64,000 bases of DNA, from positions 1 through 64,000 of the forward strand of contig JAHBTB010000012.1 of the NCBI GenBank assembly GCA_019638795.1, read 5' to 3'. Position numbers and translations under genes: made by a program. Below are positions 45,102 through 64,000 of this stretch, piece by piece. The notes under the pieces are model-generated. The model did not search any database. It was not told where the DNA came from and saw nothing but the letters and a program-made list of their open reading frames with translations. Numbering within the stretch: the first letter of the stretch is position 1; the number at the start of each line of letters is the position of its first letter. Source of the stretch: Fimbriimonadaceae bacterium (GTDB lineage: Bacteria; Armatimonadota; Fimbriimonadia; Fimbriimonadales; Fimbriimonadaceae).

Positions 45102-45887
45102 CTAGGCGACGTGTGCCGCCCCCTCTTCGCGCATAAAGTTGCGCAACCGACCCATCGCTTGCGTGTGCAGTTGGTACACACGGCTCTCACTCACTCCCAA
45201 AACCTTGCCGATCTCTTTGAAGGTCAGCCCCTCGAAATAGTAGAGGGCGATGACCAGTCTTTCGCGTTCGGGCAGGCGGTCGACCCCGGCCGCCATGATG
45301 CGGCGCAGTTCTTTGCCCTCCACCTCGACGCCCGGGTTGGCCTCTTCGTCGACGATCATCTCGACAAAGTGGATGTGGTCGTCGCCGTCCTGACTGCCGC
45401 CACCGACCACGTCGTCCAAACTGTAGACGTTGGTGCGCCCCATGCGGACGAGGAGGTCGTTCACCTCTTGGTCGCTCAGGCTCAGGTAGTCGCCCAGTTC
45501 GCGCACTGTCGCCGGACGACCGAACTCGGTCTCCAGCTTCGTCTGGGCGCGGTCTAGGGCCTTGAGCTTCTCGCGGATCGACCGCGGCACCCAGTCTTCG
45601 TCGCGGAGCATCTCCAAGATCGCGCCGCGGATGAGGGCGATGGCGTAGGTTTCAAACTTGACGTCCCGGGTGGGGTCGTACTGGTCCACGCTCTTGATCA
45701 ACCCGATGACGCCGGCGCTCACCAGGTCGTCACGGTCGAGACCGCCCGGGACGCTGGTCACCAGGCGGCCGGACGTGATCTTGACAAGATACGAATAGTG
45801 GTTGATCAGGTCGACCCGTGCCGACGGGTTCTTGTAGACCTTGTAGTCGATCCAGGTCCTCTGGAGCAGGTCGGGTGACAATGGCAT
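45102..45887 (-). CDS. FliA/WhiG-type sigma factor
   Basis: 261-residue group 3 sigma. Region 2: GGLDRDDLVSAGVIGLIKSV and DQYDPTRDVKFETYAIALIR with GAILEMLRDEDWVPRSIREK after it, a hallmark of FliA/WhiG. Region 3: FGRPATVRELGDYLSLSDQE. Region 4: LTFKEIGKVLGVSESRVYQL. It could control motility or developmental genes, but no flagellar gene occurs in the window. Flanked by two small orphan genes on the same strand. A GGGAG precedes ATG 45887. Confidence 0.93.
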   Translation of the reverse strand: MPLSPDLLQRTWIDYKVYKNPSARVDLINHYSYLVKITSGRLVTSVPGGLDRDDLVSAGVIGLIKSVDQYDPTRDVKFETYAIALIRGAILEMLRDEDWVPRSIREKLKALDRAQTKLETEFGRPATVRELGDYLSLSDQEVNDLLVRMGRTNVYSLDDVVGGGSQDGDDHIHFVEMIVDEEANPGVEVEGKELRRIMAAGVDRLPERERLVIALYYFEGLTFKEIGKVLGVSESRVYQLHTQAMGRLRNFMREEGAAHVA

Positions 45888-58627: not shown

Positions 58628-60541
58628 ATGTCTACCGTGCCGGCGCGCACCACCCGCCTTAAACCGCTTAACGAGCATGTGGACGACCAGCTGAAGCTGG
58701 TCCCCACCAAGCCGGGCTGTTACATCTACCACGACGAGGAGGACGCCGTCCTCTACGTCGGCAAGGCGGTCAACCTCCGCTCGCGGGTGCGCTCATACTT
58801 CCGGCCCAGCGCGGTCTTGGGCGACCGCATCAGCCGGATGGTGCGCAAGATCAGGCGCATCGAGACGATCGTCGTCGACAGCGAACTCGAGGCGCTGGTA
58901 CTGGAATGCAACCTCATCAAGCAGCACCGGCCACCCTACAACGTCCGCCTGCGCGACGACAAGAGCTACCCGTTCATCGTCATCACCAAGGAGGCGTTCC
59001 CCCGCGTGCTCTTCACCCGAAACCCGCGCAAGGGTTTCGGGAAGACGTTTGGGCCGTACACTTCGGCCTACGCTGTCCGCGAGACCCTGCAACTCCTCCA
59101 CAAGACCTTCCCCTTAATCCCGTGCGGCAAGTCTTGGACGGGGGCGGCCGTGCAGAAGCCTTGCCTGTATTACCACCTCAAGCAGTGCCTCGCCCCTTGC
59201 GCCGGCCTGGCCGACCGAGGGGAGTACGGCGACGTGCTCGGCCAAGTGCAACGGTTTCTGGAGGGCAAGGAGGACGGCGTCGTGGCAGAGCTGAGGGCTC
59301 AGATGACCCGCGCCGCCGACGACCTGGACTTTGAGAAGGCGGCCCTCATCCGCGACCGGGTGGCGTCCCTCGAAAGCGTCCTCGAACGCCAAAAGGTGCT
59401 CAGCGACGACCAGGGCGACCGCGACGTCGTCGCCGTCGTCAAGGACGACCGAGGCGCCGCCATCCAGATGCTCTACATCCGCGGTGGGCGGTTGATCGGC
59501 CAGCAACAGTTCATCCTCGACGGCAGTAGCGAAGCGGCGCCGACCGACGCCGTCCAGGAGTTTGTCAAGCAGTACTACTCGGCCGCGCCGGAGATCCCGC
59601 GCGAGATCCTCTTGCCTGTCGAGATCGCCGAAAAGGGCATTGTCCAGCAGTGGTTGCGCCAACGCAAAGGCGGCGCCGTCACCATCGACGTGCCCCAGGG
59701 CGGCGAAGGGATGCGCCTGGTCGACCTCGCCGCTCAAAACGCGGAACAGGCCCTGAAGACCTTCGCCCTCGAGATGGAGCAGAAGGAGGCCTGGGCCGAG
59801 CAAGCGGTGGAGCAACTGTCGGAGGCCCTCGGGCTGCCGACCCCGGCCGTGCGGGTGGAAGGCTACGACATCTCGAACACGCAGGGCACCGCCCCGGTCG
59901 CTTCGATGGTCGTCACCGAAAACGGCGAGGCGGCCAAGGCGGAGTACCGCCGGTTCAAGATCCGTTGGCACCCCGAAAGCCCGGACGACTTCGCGATGAT
60001 GAACGAGGTCATCACCCGACGGCTCCGCAACTACCTGGACGGAGACGAGAAGTTCGCCAAGCTCCCCGACCTCATGATGATCGACGGGGGCAAGGGACAA
60101 CTCGGTGCCGCCCTCAAGGCCCGTGACTCTCTCGGCCTCACCGTGCCGATGGTCGGCCTGGCCAAGCGCCACGAGGTCGTCTATGTGCCGGTCGACGCCC
60201 CCCGACTCGTGGACGGGACCGAACTCGGCGACAAGTACACCTTTCGCGAAGTCGTCCTACCCCTCACTTCACCAGGCCTCATGTTGCTGAGAAAGCTGCG
60301 CGACGAGGCCCACCGGTTCGCCCTGACCTTCCACCGCAAGGTGCGGGACAAGCGGCTCCATGGCAGCGTGCTCGACGAGATACCCGGGGTCGGCCCACGC
60401 CGGCGGCGGCTGTTGCTGAGGACATTCGGCTCGATCGAAGGGATACGACGGGCCAGCACCGAGGAGATCGCGGCGGTGCCGACCTTCACGTCCAGGTTGG
60501 CCGAAGAGATCCTGGAGTTCCTCCGCGGCGAATCTGAGTGA
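58628..60541 (+). CDS. uvrC: Excinuclease ABC subunit C
   Basis: 637 residues. GIY-YIG nuclease at the N-terminus (KPGCYIYHDEEDAVLYVGKA, about 29-48), a UVR domain (DDLDFEKAALIRDRVASLES, about 230), the RNase H-like C-terminal nuclease (GYDISNTQGTAPVASMVV, about 415; MMIDGGKGQLGAAL, about 485) and a C-terminal helix-hairpin-helix (IPGVGPRRRRLLLRTFGS, about 585). Makes both incisions in nucleotide excision repair. Start ATG 58628 without a clear ribosome site. Confidence 0.97.
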   Translation: MSTVPARTTRLKPLNEHVDDQLKLVPTKPGCYIYHDEEDAVLYVGKAVNLRSRVRSYFRPSAVLGDRISRMVRKIRRIETIVVDSELEALVLECNLIKQHRPPYNVRLRDDKSYPFIVITKEAFPRVLFTRNPRKGFGKTFGPYTSAYAVRETLQLLHKTFPLIPCGKSWTGAAVQKPCLYYHLKQCLAPCAGLADRGEYGDVLGQVQRFLEGKEDGVVAELRAQMTRAADDLDFEKAALIRDRVASLESVLERQKVLSDDQGDRDVVAVVKDDRGAAIQMLYIRGGRLIGQQQFILDGSSEAAPTDAVQEFVKQYYSAAPEIPREILLPVEIAEKGIVQQWLRQRKGGAVTIDVPQGGEGMRLVDLAAQNAEQALKTFALEMEQKEAWAEQAVEQLSEALGLPTPAVRVEGYDISNTQGTAPVASMVVTENGEAAKAEYRRFKIRWHPESPDDFAMMNEVITRRLRNYLDGDEKFAKLPDLMMIDGGKGQLGAALKARDSLGLTVPMVGLAKRHEVVYVPVDAPRLVDGTELGDKYTFREVVLPLTSPGLMLLRKLRDEAHRFALTFHRKVRDKRLHGSVLDEIPGVGPRRRRLLLRTFGSIEGIRRASTEEIAAVPTFTSRLAEEILEFLRGESE

Positions 60542-60545
60542 GTAT

Positions 60546-60585
60546 CCCAGTAGAGCGTGATATGAGAAAACCAAGTTCTACTGGG
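60546..60585. repeat. Left boundary repeat of the GHKL/STAS-like module
   Basis: CCAGTAGAGCGTGAT (60547-60561) is identical to 61889-61903. Here CCCAGTAGA (60546-60554) also pairs with TCTACTGGG (60577-60585), a 9 bp inverted repeat with a 22 nt loop. Begins 4 bp after the uvrC stop. Confidence 0.8.
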
Positions 60586-60604
60586 GAATTTGAACCTAGA
60601 CTCG

Positions 60605-60895
60605 TCAGCTTTCGAGCATGTAGTCGGCGACCGTGCGGACGACCTCTTGAACGACAGGCGCGCAGTTCTTGAAGAGGAGGCGGTCGAAGACGTCGTCGCC
60701 AAATCTTCTGATCGGTTCGCTGATCAGGGCGTGGACGAACGACTGCGTGGCCCCGGTGACCCCTTGAAAGTCCAGAACGACCTCCTCGCCTGCCTCCAAG
60801 GCAGGCTCGACTTGGACAATCCGGATGGACCGGGCAATGTCCTTGTTCTCTGCGAAAGACCCGGCCAGTTCAGCCATGAAAACCGTCTTGCACAT
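60605..60895 (-). CDS. STAS-like protein (DUF4325 type)
   Basis: 96 residues. EEVVLDFQGVTGATQSFVHA (about 37-56) followed by LISEPIRRFGDDVFDRLLFK matches the DUF4325 STAS-like family. STAS folds usually act in partner-switching, being controlled by GHKL kinases. The GHKL ATPase lies 11 bp upstream on the same strand, so the two probably form an operon and a regulatory pair. ATG 60895. Base composition is lower in GC than neighbouring genes. Confidence 0.8.
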   Translation of the reverse strand: MCKTVFMAELAGSFAENKDIARSIRIVQVEPALEAGEEVVLDFQGVTGATQSFVHALISEPIRRFGDDVFDRLLFKNCAPVVQEVVRTVADYMLES

Positions 60896-60906
60896 GTGTT
60901 AGCCCA

Positions 60907-61875
60907 CTAGATGAACTTAGGTGACTTGTACCGCTCCTTCTTTCGCTCGCGTATCGCAGACATGTATGCAGTCCTAATTGCCGCCAAGAGAGCCTGGAAC
61001 TCTTGGGTCTGGTCAAGCGACATGTCGATGCCGACGACGGTGCCCGGGAACCGCGGTGCGATGTTCGTCTCAGCGTGCCTGTCGAGCCGCGGGTCGGCAT
61101 GGAGCCGGGGGAACCCCTTGTAGCGTTTGTCTCGCTTGGTCAGCTTGTACAGACCAGTACCGCTATAGAGGATAAAGTAGTCGCGCGCCACCATCGCCAT
61201 GGACTTGACAAAGAAAAGCCCCGCTCCGGCGTTGGTCTCGGTGCCTCCCTCGCGGGTCGTCGTTCCGGTGATCCCTGGAGTCAGCGCAAGCGCAATTGCG
61301 TCGATCTCGTTCTTCACCGGCCAGGCATTTGAGATCGAGGCGCGGACGCCCACGCCCACATCCGCGATACCCAAACGGACCGTGTTGGTCTTTGGGTAGT
61401 ACTGCGCCGCAACAAACGCACCCGTCGGGGACGCCGAGTGTTCCAGGACGTTGCGCACGAGCTCCCCGACTACGTACTTGATCGGATCGGCCTGTTGTGG
61501 CGCCAGGTGCAGCAGGGGGATCATGTCCGTAATAAAGCGCGTCTGTTCCGCGGAAGTGCTGATCTGTGTGACTGGGATGAACCTCCCGGCTGCTTCGTGC
61601 TTTTTGATCGTGAAAGGGGAGGCCTTGCCCAAGATTTCGAACAACCCCATGCGATCCAGATAGTGCCCAGATGTCGCGGTGATCGTATCAATGTGGACGT
61701 CCTGGGGACGGAGTCTGCTACCCAATGCCGCGATCATCGCGAGGACGACAGGGTGCACGCTCACCCACCTGTCGTGGGTGGTGACCGTCAGACGCCCAGG
61801 CTCACCAAGGTCGAAACCCCTCAGAAAGTGCTCGAAATTGCGAAGGTAGTCCGAGTTCGAGAGATAAACCTTCAC
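60907..61875 (-). CDS. GHKL-type ATPase, partner of the STAS-like protein
   Basis: 322 residues. An N-terminal ~125-residue region without a known motif is followed by a GHKL (HATPase) fold. N-box ELVRNVLEHS (138-147), G1 DVGVG (172-176) and G2 GAGLFFVKS (217-225) are intact, so ATP binding is expected. No histidine-kinase phosphoacceptor domain and no membrane segment. A very basic C-terminus (RERKKERYKSPKF). With the STAS-like protein it resembles a partner-switch module. GTG 61875 lies 7 bases after TAGAAT, which abuts a palindrome. Lower GC than flanks suggests acquisition by transfer. Confidence 0.82.
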   Translation of the reverse strand: MKVYLSNSDYLRNFEHFLRGFDLGEPGRLTVTTHDRWVSVHPVVLAMIAALGSRLRPQDVHIDTITATSGHYLDRMGLFEILGKASPFTIKKHEAAGRFIPVTQISTSAEQTRFITDMIPLLHLAPQQADPIKYVVGELVRNVLEHSASPTGAFVAAQYYPKTNTVRLGIADVGVGVRASISNAWPVKNEIDAIALALTPGITGTTTREGGTETNAGAGLFFVKSMAMVARDYFILYSGTGLYKLTKRDKRYKGFPRLHADPRLDRHAETNIAPRFPGTVVGIDMSLDQTQEFQALLAAIRTAYMSAIRERKKERYKSPKFI

Positions 61876-61882
61876 AGCTTGG

Positions 61883-61888
61883 ATTCTA
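61883..61888 (-). promoter_or_regulatory. -10-like element of the GHKL/STAS-like operon
   Basis: TAGAAT (minus strand) ends 7 nt before GTG 61875. Confidence 0.45.
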
Positions 61889-61923
61889 CCAGTAGAGCGT
61901 GATTATCCAAAATCACGCTCTAC
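61889..61923. promoter_or_regulatory. Palindrome at the module promoter, doubling as right boundary repeat
   Basis: GTAGAGCGTGATT (61892-61904) and AATCACGCTCTAC (61911-61923) are perfect 13 bp arms with a 6 nt loop. The palindrome overlaps the expected -35 region of the GHKL promoter. Its left arm contains the 15 bp sequence repeated at 60547. It fits an operator, an attachment-like site, or both. Confidence 0.75.
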
Positions 61924-61937
61924 CGGAAAGCCTCACT

Positions 61938-62108
61938 TCAAAACGACGCTTGCTCGGCCGGCTCGCTGGAGTACACGAGGGCGCAAACGGTGCCGGGGAC
62001 CCAGCCGAGGACGGTGAGGACCAGGGTGAGCAGCAATGGCTTCACCCCTCGGTCGATCACGGCGAGAGGCGGGCAGACGACGCTGAGGACGACGCGGTAC
62101 CAGGGCAC
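61938..62108 (-). CDS. Pmp3/YqaE family small membrane protein
   Basis: 56 residues from GTG 62108. Two membrane helices with the family signature: VVLSVVCPPLAVIDRGVKP, then LLLTLVLTVLGWVPGTVCAL and VYS. Pmp3-like proteolipids influence membrane potential under stress. A TACAAC hexamer six bases before the GTG may be its -10. A longer reading from ATG 62165 would overlap the ileS start on the other strand and adds no similarity. Confidence 0.85.
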   Translation of the reverse strand: MPWYRVVLSVVCPPLAVIDRGVKPLLLTLVLTVLGWVPGTVCALVYSSEPAEQASF

Positions 62109-62146
62109 GTCGCGGTTGTACCCGCGTCGGCACCCCGGCCCCCCAG

Positions 62147-62152
62147 TACAAT
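62147..62152 (+). promoter_or_regulatory. -10-like element before ileS
   Basis: TACAAT ends 11 nt before ATG 62164; no ribosome site. Confidence 0.45.
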
Positions 62153-62163
62153 CCTGAACTTCC

Positions 62164-64000
62164 ATGGACTTTAAAGCCACTCTGAACTTGCCAGACCCAA
62201 GTTCGGCCATCCCCATGAAGGCCGACTTGGCCAAACGTGAGCCTGACCTGCAGGCCCGCTGGGACGAAGAGGGGCTCTATCGTTCGATCATCGCGGCACG
62301 GCGCGAGGCCGGCGCCCCGTCCTTCGTGCTCCACGACGGCCCGCCCTACACCAACGGGCCGATCCACTTGGGCACCGCCCTCAACAAGATCCTGAAGGAC
62401 TTCGTCGTCAAGTCGCGCTCCCTGATGGGGTACCGCGCCCCCTACGTGCCCGGCTTTGACAACCACGGCCTGCCGATCGAGCAGGCGGTGATGAAGACCT
62501 TCAATGAAAAGAAGGTGGTGCCGACCACCGTCGAACTGCGCCGGGCCTGTCGCCAGCACGCCGAGCACTACATCGGGGTCCAGTCCGAGCAGTTCCGACG
62601 CCTTGGCGTCTTCGGCCTCTGGGACAAGCCGTACACGTCGATGGCGTACAAATACGAGGCGGAGATCATCCGCGTGTTCAAGCGCCTGGTCGAGGGCGGC
62701 TACGTCTACCGAGGCCTGCGGCCCGTCCTGTGGTCGCCGACCTCCCAGACCGCCTTGGCCGACACGGAGATCGTCTACAAGGACCATGTCTCTGTCTCGA
62801 TCTACGTCAAGTTCCCCCTGATCGAAGACGTGAACGGCGTCTTCGACGGGCTGGACAACGTCTCGACCGTCATCTGGACCACGACCCCGTGGACGATCCC
62901 GGCCAACTTGGCCGTCGCCTTCCATCCCAGCCTAGACTATGTCGTGGTCAAGTCCGGCGACGCCCACCTGGTGATGGCCGAATCGCTCTATGAGCACGTC
63001 ATGCACAAGGTCGGCCTCGACATTGACCAAGTGGTTGACCGGATCAAGGGAAGCGCCCTAGAAGGCACAAGGTTCAAGCACCCGGTGTTCGACCGCGACT
63101 CGGTCGCCGTGCTCGCCGACTATGTCACCACCGAAGACGGCACGGGTGTCGTCCACACCGCGCCGGGCCACGGGCGAGACGACTTCTACACCGGTCAGAA
63201 GTACAACCTGCCTGCCTTCTGCCCGGTGGACGGACGCGGCGTGCTGACCGAGGAGGCCGGCGAGTTCGCCGGAGTCTTCTACCGGAAGTGCGACACCGTG
63301 GTGGTGGAACGGCTCCGCGAACTCGGCATGCTGCTTCTGGCCGAGGAGTACCAACACAGCTACCCACACGCCGAGCGCGACGACCAGCCCGTCATTTTCC
63401 GGGCCACCGAGCAATGGTTCGTCGGCATCGACGCGCCCTTTCATCTCGACCCGACCAAGACCCTGCGCCAGAAGATGTTGGAAGAGATCGACAGGGTCGA
63501 GTGGTTTCCACCATCTGGTTATGAACGTATCAAGGGAATGGTCGCGGGCCGACCCGACTGGTGTGTCTCGCGCCAGCGTCCCTGGGGCGTCGGGCTCCCG
63601 GTGTTCTACGGGGCCGACAGCGGCACCCCCGTGCTCGACCCCGTCGCCATCGAGGCGGTCGCCTGCCTCGTCGAGGAGAAGGGCTCGGACGCCTGGTACG
63701 AGGTGGAGGCGGCCGACATCCTGCCCCAGGGATACCGACACCCGACGACGGGCGAGACGAGCTTCCGCAAGGAGGTCGACGTCTTTGACGTCTGGTTTGA
63801 CTCGGGATGCACCGCGCTCTGCGTCATGCCGGGCGAAGTCGAACCGGAGTGGCAGGACGAACTCCCTGTCGACATCTACCTGGAAGGCTCCGACCAGCAC
63901 CGGGGCTGGTTCAACGTCTCCTTGATCCTTTGCACCGCCACGCGAGGGCACGCCCCCTACCGCCAGGTCGTCACCCACGGCTTTGTCACCGACGAGCACG
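62164..64000 (+). CDS. ileS: Isoleucyl-tRNA synthetase, 5' part (runs off the right edge)
   Basis: 612 codons of an expected ~920-950. Class I synthetase: the HIGH motif appears as HLGT in [12 protein letters not shown] (about 64-75), after [12 protein letters not shown]. The CP1 editing domain contains [20 protein letters not shown] (about 237-256) and [11 protein letters not shown] with the editing Asp. [11 protein letters not shown] and DVWFDSGCT lead towards the active site, and [14 protein letters not shown] is just before the edge. KMSKS lies outside. Charges tRNA-Ile and edits Val-tRNA. Confidence 0.97.

What the first reader, a model, noticed from the sequence alone, without database searches (positions are those of the whole stretch)
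60546..61923. GHKL ATPase plus STAS-like pair as a small transferable module bounded by repeats
Seen: two minus-strand genes 11 bp apart, with lower GC than the flanking uvrC and ileS. CCAGTAGAGCGTGAT occurs identically at both edges (60547-60561, 61889-61903). GHKL boxes are intact but there is no phosphoacceptor domain. Known: STAS proteins are classic partners of GHKL kinases in partner switching (SpoIIAA/SpoIIAB, RsbV/RsbW). Inference: a compact cytoplasmic regulatory or defence-like module, possibly carried as a cassette. No sigma factor is adjacent, so the target is unknown; the two sigma factors in this window are candidates only by proximity.
Basis: partly seen in the sequence, partly recalled or inferred. 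Interest (0 to 1): 0.78.

Follow-up and report, generated by a model that had tools for sequence, protein, structure and literature searches.

The report
Minimal kinase-STAS switch with paired palindromes
A bacterium of the family Fimbriimonadaceae carries a small accessory two-gene switch, a protein kinase and its likely target, of the family recently shown to turn on bacterial immune genes after DNA damage, but stripped of both known outputs and framed by two matching palindromes that look like its control sites.

Summary
Two minus-strand genes, a GHKL ATPase (60907-61875) and a DUF4325 STAS-like protein (60605-60895), sit between uvrC and pmp3/ileS. The 15-bp repeat is half of two 38-bp palindromes, R1 (60547-60584) and R2 (61889-61926). 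The sister species has another gene in this slot and no palindromes, so the pair is an accessory insert whose edges nearly coincide with R1 and R2.

The pair belongs to the CapK/CapS-VapK/VapS kinase-substrate group (EMBO J 2026, PMC13373217). The ATPase domain is closest to SpoIIAB, a profile of the STAS family hits the VapS structure 9z7o, and the expected phospho-serine (Ser52) is present. True vapKSC and CapKS-like loci exist in the same phylum.

R2 abuts a -10 box 7 nt from the start codon, and a family relative carries the pair at an unrelated place with an equivalent palindrome there. The palindromes are best read as operators, not transposon ends. Neither is found elsewhere in the genome.

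Best explanation: a DNA-damage/ssDNA-activated kinase-STAS switch with an operator-controlled promoter, acting on an unlinked partner. The output is unknown. New variant of a known kind.

The parts
60907..61875 (-). GHKL (HATPase) kinase gene, 322 aa, GTG start: degenerate N-terminal STAS-like region (about 1-95), SpoIIAB-like kinase domain (about 96-289), basic C-terminal helix (291-313)
60605..60895 (-). DUF4325 STAS-like gene, 96 aa; predicted phospho-acceptor Ser52 in TQSFVHAL; no wHTH, no C-terminal tail
61889..61926 (-). R2: 38-bp palindrome (16-bp arms, 6-bp spacer) upstream of the kinase gene, abutting the -10 box; proposed operator
61883..61888 (-). TAGAAT, -10 type hexamer 7 nt before the GTG start (nearly leaderless promoter); TAAGAT at the same place in the G022 copy
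60547..60584 (-). R1: second palindrome, in register with R2, one arm exact and one degenerate, downstream of the STAS gene and 5 bp past the uvrC stop; proposed second operator or relic of a second promoter
58628..60541 (+). uvrC, left neighbour (native flank)
61938..62234 (-). Pmp3-family small membrane protein ORF (longest frame; the true start is probably near 62166), right neighbour (native flank), shared with sister G001
62164..63999 (+). ileS (runs beyond the window)

Best explanation
A minimal member of the CapK/CapS-VapK/VapS group of kinase-substrate switches. The 322-aa kinase most likely phosphorylates Ser52 of the 96-aa STAS protein when it is activated, by analogy through single-stranded DNA from damage or phage attack. 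Phosphorylation changes what the STAS protein binds. The pair's own promoter is controlled through the palindrome R2 at its -35/-10 region, and R1 is a second site for the same DNA-binding factor. Steps supported by sequence or structure: the kinase fold and boxes, STAS fold and serine, gene pairing across distant loci, and palindrome plus -10 in two unrelated contexts. Inferred: phosphorylation, the ssDNA trigger, operator function and the identity of the binder. Unknown: the output partner. It is not encoded in the module and must be elsewhere in the genome or lost.
For: The kinase domain is closest to SpoIIAB in SpoIIAA or sigma-F complexes (Z 13.3-13.9 over 125-134 residues), with intact N/G1/G2 boxes. 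The STAS model (pLDDT 96.8) matches RsbS, RsbV and SpoIIAA (Z 6-7). PF14213 matches at 6e-13, and a profile of the family hits 9z7o Escherichia VapS at E 1e-14. Ser52 begins the second helix and aligns with the serine of CapS-like proteins. The kinase-DUF4325 order recurs in phages, plasmids and chromosomes, and fused forms exist (G035 417 aa, phrog_5816). vapKSC (G109, and G213 by reading) and CapKS-like loci (G075, G081, G112) occur in the same phylum. The G022 copy (68%/64% identity) lies between tRNA-Ile and a pyrophosphatase-like gene, yet keeps a palindrome with the same GCGTG/CACGC core 12 nt from the start and a TAAGAT -10. Published CapS binds two palindromes sharing one half-site, one on each side of capS (PMC13373217).
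Against: The STAS protein has no DNA-binding domain, so it cannot be the repressor in the way CapS is. The kinase lacks an aligned aromatic at the position where relatives mostly have one (Ser39; Trp37 lies two residues away). A tree of distant kinases does not place the window pair firmly with any class. No immune operon or toxin is adjacent. The palindrome upstream of the kinase is strong only in the two Fimbriimonadaceae copies among pairs of the family.
Confidence: 0.6

Rival explanations
1. Orphaned immune regulator: the module once drove an effector operon from a promoter at R1, as in CapKS loci, and the effector was lost when the module came to lie against uvrC. R1 is the relic.
For: R1 aligns in register with R2, with its gene-distal arm order kept, one arm intact and a degraded -10 (GATACT) behind it, pointing into antisense uvrC. 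Sister G001 has nothing like it after uvrC. CapKS loci have a second palindrome in the promoter of the downstream operon.
Against: The G022 copy also has no downstream gene in the same direction and no second palindrome of this kind, only a different hairpin, so a two-gene state is older than this locus. No effector remnant lies between R1 and uvrC.
Confidence: 0.2
2. Classical partner switch: the kinase is an anti-sigma factor and the STAS protein its antagonist, acting on one of the genome's sigma factors, such as the sigma-70 family gene at 45102-45887.
For: Best structural matches are SpoIIAB, UsfX and RsbW with their antagonists; a sigma factor with regions 2, 3 and 4 lies 15 kb away; a sigma-like HTH gene precedes the pair on pAACI02.
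Against: The kinase carries an N-terminal STAS-like region and a C-terminal helix beyond the SpoIIAB-matched part; the closest family with data (VapS by profile) does not act on sigma factors; no sigma gene adjoins either Fimbriimonadaceae copy.
Confidence: 0.15
3. Mobile cassette: R1 and R2 are the terminal repeats or hairpins of a small element moved by an enzyme in trans.
For: The insert edges coincide with R1/R2 within about 5-30 bp when compared with G001; composition is low; the pair is sporadic and sits elsewhere in G022 next to a tRNA.
Against: No other copies of the palindrome in the genome; G022 has only one matching palindrome; no transposase, recombinase or obvious target duplication; the palindrome position relative to a -10 box and start codon fits an operator better.
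Confidence: 0.12
4. The palindromes are merely transcription terminators of pmp3 and uvrC/STAS.
For: They lie 12 nt and 5 nt beyond the stop codons of pmp3 and uvrC; other stop-proximal hairpins exist in the window (27486, 42172).
Against: No T tract on either side (one search lists neither); sister G001 uvrC has no such hairpin; R2 and the G022 palindrome share the core, the distance to start and the adjoining -10, although the upstream genes differ.
Confidence: 0.15

Closest known systems
VapK/VapS of VapKSC (Chambers et al. 2026, PMC13373217; VapS structure 9z7o)
   Same: STAS-GHKL kinase without HTH followed by a DUF4325 STAS protein; family profile hits VapS at E 1e-14
   Different: No vapC gene; the STAS protein ends at 96 aa and lacks the C-terminal segment (VapS 94-116) needed to inhibit VapC; its serine lies in TQSF rather than one residue earlier as in the vapKSC-type relatives (TSAF, TSVF)
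CapK/CapS (same paper)
   Same: Kinase then STAS gene; conserved serine before Phe on the second helix; two palindromes with one shared half-site, at the promoter and beyond the STAS gene
   Different: No wHTH on the STAS protein, no HTH on the kinase, no downstream immune operon; different half-site (GTAGAGCGTG against TTAA), and the first palindrome is upstream of the kinase rather than between the genes
SpoIIAB/SpoIIAA and RsbW/RsbV partner switches
   Same: Kinase fold (Z up to 13.9) and STAS fold (Z 6-7)
   Different: Extra N-terminal region and C-terminal helix on the kinase, no adjacent sigma factor
phrog_3364 and phrog_5816 (phage families of unknown function), and PADLOC model PDLC02567 named DrmA
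   Same: Both window proteins match phrog_5816 and positions 76-386 of PDLC02567 in order
   Different: These are fused kinase-STAS architectures; the DrmA name comes from the rest of a 1750-position model and says nothing about this pair

Membership tests
VapKSC | STAS-GHKL kinase without N-terminal HTH | tested here: inconclusive
   Kinase domain certain; N-terminal region 1-95 resembles STAS by alignment, but the model there is of low to mixed confidence
VapKSC | DUF4325/VapS STAS partner next to the kinase | tested here: met
   PF14213 6e-13; family profile to 9z7o VapS 1e-14
VapKSC | VapS C-terminal inhibitory segment | tested here: not met
   Protein ends at residue 96, within the STAS fold
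VapKSC | adjacent VapC PIN toxin | tested here: not met
   None between uvrC and ileS; the only PIN match in the genome is a PIN-TRAM protein of about 486 aa
CapKS | CapS with C-terminal wHTH | tested here: not met
   96 aa, STAS only; compare the 185-240 aa partners in G081, G112, G075
CapKS | conserved phospho-serine at the start of the second STAS helix | tested here: met
   Ser52
CapKS | two palindromic operators sharing a half-site | tested here: inconclusive
   R1 and R2 have the form, but binding is untested and the half-site differs
CapKS | downstream immune operon | tested here: not met
   Convergent uvrC follows
CapKS and VapKSC | kinase activated by ssDNA through an aromatic at the STAS/GHKL groove | tested here: inconclusive
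   Published CapK/VapK sequences were not at hand; at the position where most relatives have an aromatic the window has Ser39, with conserved Trp37 two residues upstream
SpoIIAB/RsbW anti-sigma module | cognate sigma factor linked to the module | tested here: not met
   None adjacent in window or G022
Transposable cassette | further copies with the same ends in the genome | tested here: not met

The most novel reading that the evidence does not exclude
A third output class of the CapK/VapK group: a stand-alone kinase-STAS pair with neither DNA-binding domain nor toxin, kept as a two-gene unit under its own palindromic operator and signalling DNA damage to an unlinked partner. Similar short-STAS pairs on phages and plasmids may belong to it.
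Probability: 0.35. Interest if true: 0.6.

Novelty: new variant of a known kind. Interest (0 to 1): 0.45.

Why it matters
The CapKS/VapKSC switches were described only in 2026, with two outputs: a DNA-binding repressor and a toxin. A pair that keeps the kinase and its substrate but has neither output suggests that the sensor half may travel alone, and poses a clear question: what does the STAS protein bind? It also links many unannotated GHKL-DUF4325 pairs in phages and plasmids, often beside integrase or repressor genes, to a tested mechanism. The module is small and easy to test in E. coli.

Tried and rejected
Dispersed repeat family: the 15-mer and the palindrome are not repeated elsewhere in the genome. 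General palindrome upstream of all kinase genes of the family: strong only in window and G022; G061 has a different one and the Clostridioides phage a weak one. Close relatives in viral contigs: none with the window kinase. Genome contigs: only the G022 locus. Alignment A3 was too diverse for a contig scan. NCBIfam: no match. Phmmer of single window proteins against PDB: nothing useful. The DrmA label in PADLOC was rejected as a function for this pair: the match is to the N-terminal 400 of 1750 positions, and the fused kinase-STAS protein of G035 covers the same part. Consensus promoter scan: no full sigma-70 site at R2, so the -35 is weak; the -10 claim rests on position (0.9% background) and on recurrence in G022. 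The YprA helicase paper has no mention of STAS or GHKL. The 15-mer repeat alone as proof of a cassette: rejected, chance gives about 1.4 such pairs in the window. Foldseek on the kinase was submitted but not collected; the VIA second look was used.

Full report
Observation. The two genes are at the stated coordinates on the minus strand, 11 bp apart. The kinase gene starts with GTG at 61875 and ends at 60907 (322 aa); the STAS-like gene runs 60895-60605 (96 aa). Their right-hand neighbour is a small Pmp3-family gene (stop at 61938), with ileS beyond; the left-hand neighbour is uvrC, convergent. GC and GC3 are lower (0.59, 0.76-0.78) than in uvrC (0.655, 0.87) and in ileS (GC3 0.87). CCAGTAGAGCGTGAT is exact at both edges. 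Alone, such a 15-mer repeat is not significant in a 64-kb window (about 1.4 expected), but each copy is one arm of a 38-bp palindrome, the two palindromes align without gaps over 45 nt at 73%, and R2 is among the three strongest palindromes of the window.

Accessory status. The host is a Fimbriimonadaceae bacterium (its family member G022 is recorded as such). The sister species G001 (uvrC 95% identical) lacks the kinase. Its uvrC-pmp3 interval holds a different gene, which from its translation I read as VOC/glyoxalase-like (own judgement), and no palindrome. DNA similarity between the two species stops at 60531 and resumes at 61959, so the insert edges nearly coincide with R1 and R2. In 61 related genomes only G022 has a close homologue (68% identity), and DUF4325 is found in 9 of 291 genomes of the phylum. 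In G022 (72% complete) the pair lies between tRNA-Ile and a pyrophosphatase-like gene. For the STAS gene dN is 0.28 and dS 1.3, close to uvrC between the same two genomes (0.23 and 1.04; dN/dS about 0.22 in both; dS of the kinase is saturated). The pair is thus old and under purifying selection, with loss, relocation or transfer within the family.

Proteins. The STAS protein matches PF14213 (6e-13). Its model is confident (pLDDT 96.8) and has the STAS fold: RsbS, RsbV and SpoIIAA rank high (Z 6-7), and these Z values alone would be modest. The sequence link is stronger: a profile of nine family members hits Escherichia VapS, 9z7o, at E 1e-14. Ser52 begins the second helix, where SpoIIAA and CapS are phosphorylated (PMC13373217). 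The kinase domain (96-289) is closest to SpoIIAB (Z 13.9, 134 residues, 2.6 A), and its N, G1 and G2 boxes are intact across 18 relatives. The first 95 residues align with a region that in relatives reads as a STAS motif (for example YVDPLGMA in the Pseudomonas plasmid copy), but the model is uncertain there.

Family context. The pairing of kinase and DUF4325 gene recurs in Bacteroides, Clostridioides, Gordonia and Marinitoga phages, on plasmids of Alicyclobacillus and Pseudomonas, and in a Francisella prophage. In the phages it often lies near integrase and repressor genes. Fused forms occur (G035; phrog_5816). Within the same phylum, G109 carries kinase, 116-aa STAS and a PIN gene, i.e. vapKSC (PF01850 3e-5), and G213 shows the same order by reading of the frames. 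G075, G081 and G112 carry partners of 185-240 aa with a C-terminal segment that looks like a winged helix (not confirmed by Pfam). The window pair has neither extension nor toxin. The only PIN protein of the genome is a PIN-TRAM protein.

Published mechanism. Chambers et al. (EMBO J 2026, PMC13373217) show that CapK, activated by ssDNA, phosphorylates a serine of CapS; CapS, a STAS-wHTH dimer, then leaves two palindromic operators that share a half-site, one between capK and capS and one beyond capS. In VapKSC the STAS protein instead holds a VapC toxin through a C-terminal segment, and phosphomimic mutation frees the toxin.

The palindromes. R2 lies 13 nt before the GTG and directly abuts TAGAAT, 7 nt before the GTG; in G022 a palindrome lies 12 nt before the GTG and abuts TAAGAT, 6 nt before it. 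Such a hexamer 5-9 nt before a start-like codon has a background of 0.9%. The G022 palindrome shares the core AGCGTG...CACGCT, while other arm positions differ symmetrically. It therefore travels with the module and not with the flanking genes. This argues against a terminator of the upstream gene and for an operator over the -35 region. R1 aligns in register with R2, has one intact arm, and is followed by GATACT. It may be a second operator or the relic of a second promoter. Only R1 and R2 in the genome fit the palindrome well. Since the STAS protein has no DNA-binding domain, the factor that binds them is unknown.

Verdict. It is not a member of CapKS or VapKSC as defined, because the wHTH, the VapS tail and VapC were tested and are missing. 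It very likely works like them in its kinase-substrate half. The output is unknown.

Noticed in passing
L046 (G001:C69), about 2050-2500: The sister species carries a different small gene (VOC/glyoxalase-like by my reading) in the same uvrC-pmp3 interval, so this interval is a variable slot.
   Followed up: partly
L081 6758-8228 (Pseudomonas plasmid pBYT1-1): A short-STAS kinase pair next to genes annotated as 8-oxoguanine glycosylase, DNA adenine methylase and 7-cyano-7-deazaguanine synthase on a conjugative plasmid; possibly a defence island.
   Followed up: no
L099 1632-3415 (G109): A complete vapKSC operon in the same phylum as the window.
   Followed up: partly
PADLOC model PDLC02567 (DrmA), matched by window 60605-61875: The first 400 of its 1750 positions match kinase-STAS proteins in order, so the model may label such pairs as DISARM by mistake or stem from a fused gene.
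   Followed up: partly
L070 79-1748 (plasmid pAACI02): A sigma-factor-like HTH gene directly precedes a kinase-STAS pair.
   Followed up: no
L104-L106 (G061, G062, G063): Kinases of the same family without an adjacent DUF4325 gene; the G061 gene has strong hairpins on both sides.
   Followed up: no
window 45102-45887: Sigma-70 family factor with regions 2, 3 and 4, 15 kb from the pair; no evidence links them.
   Followed up: no
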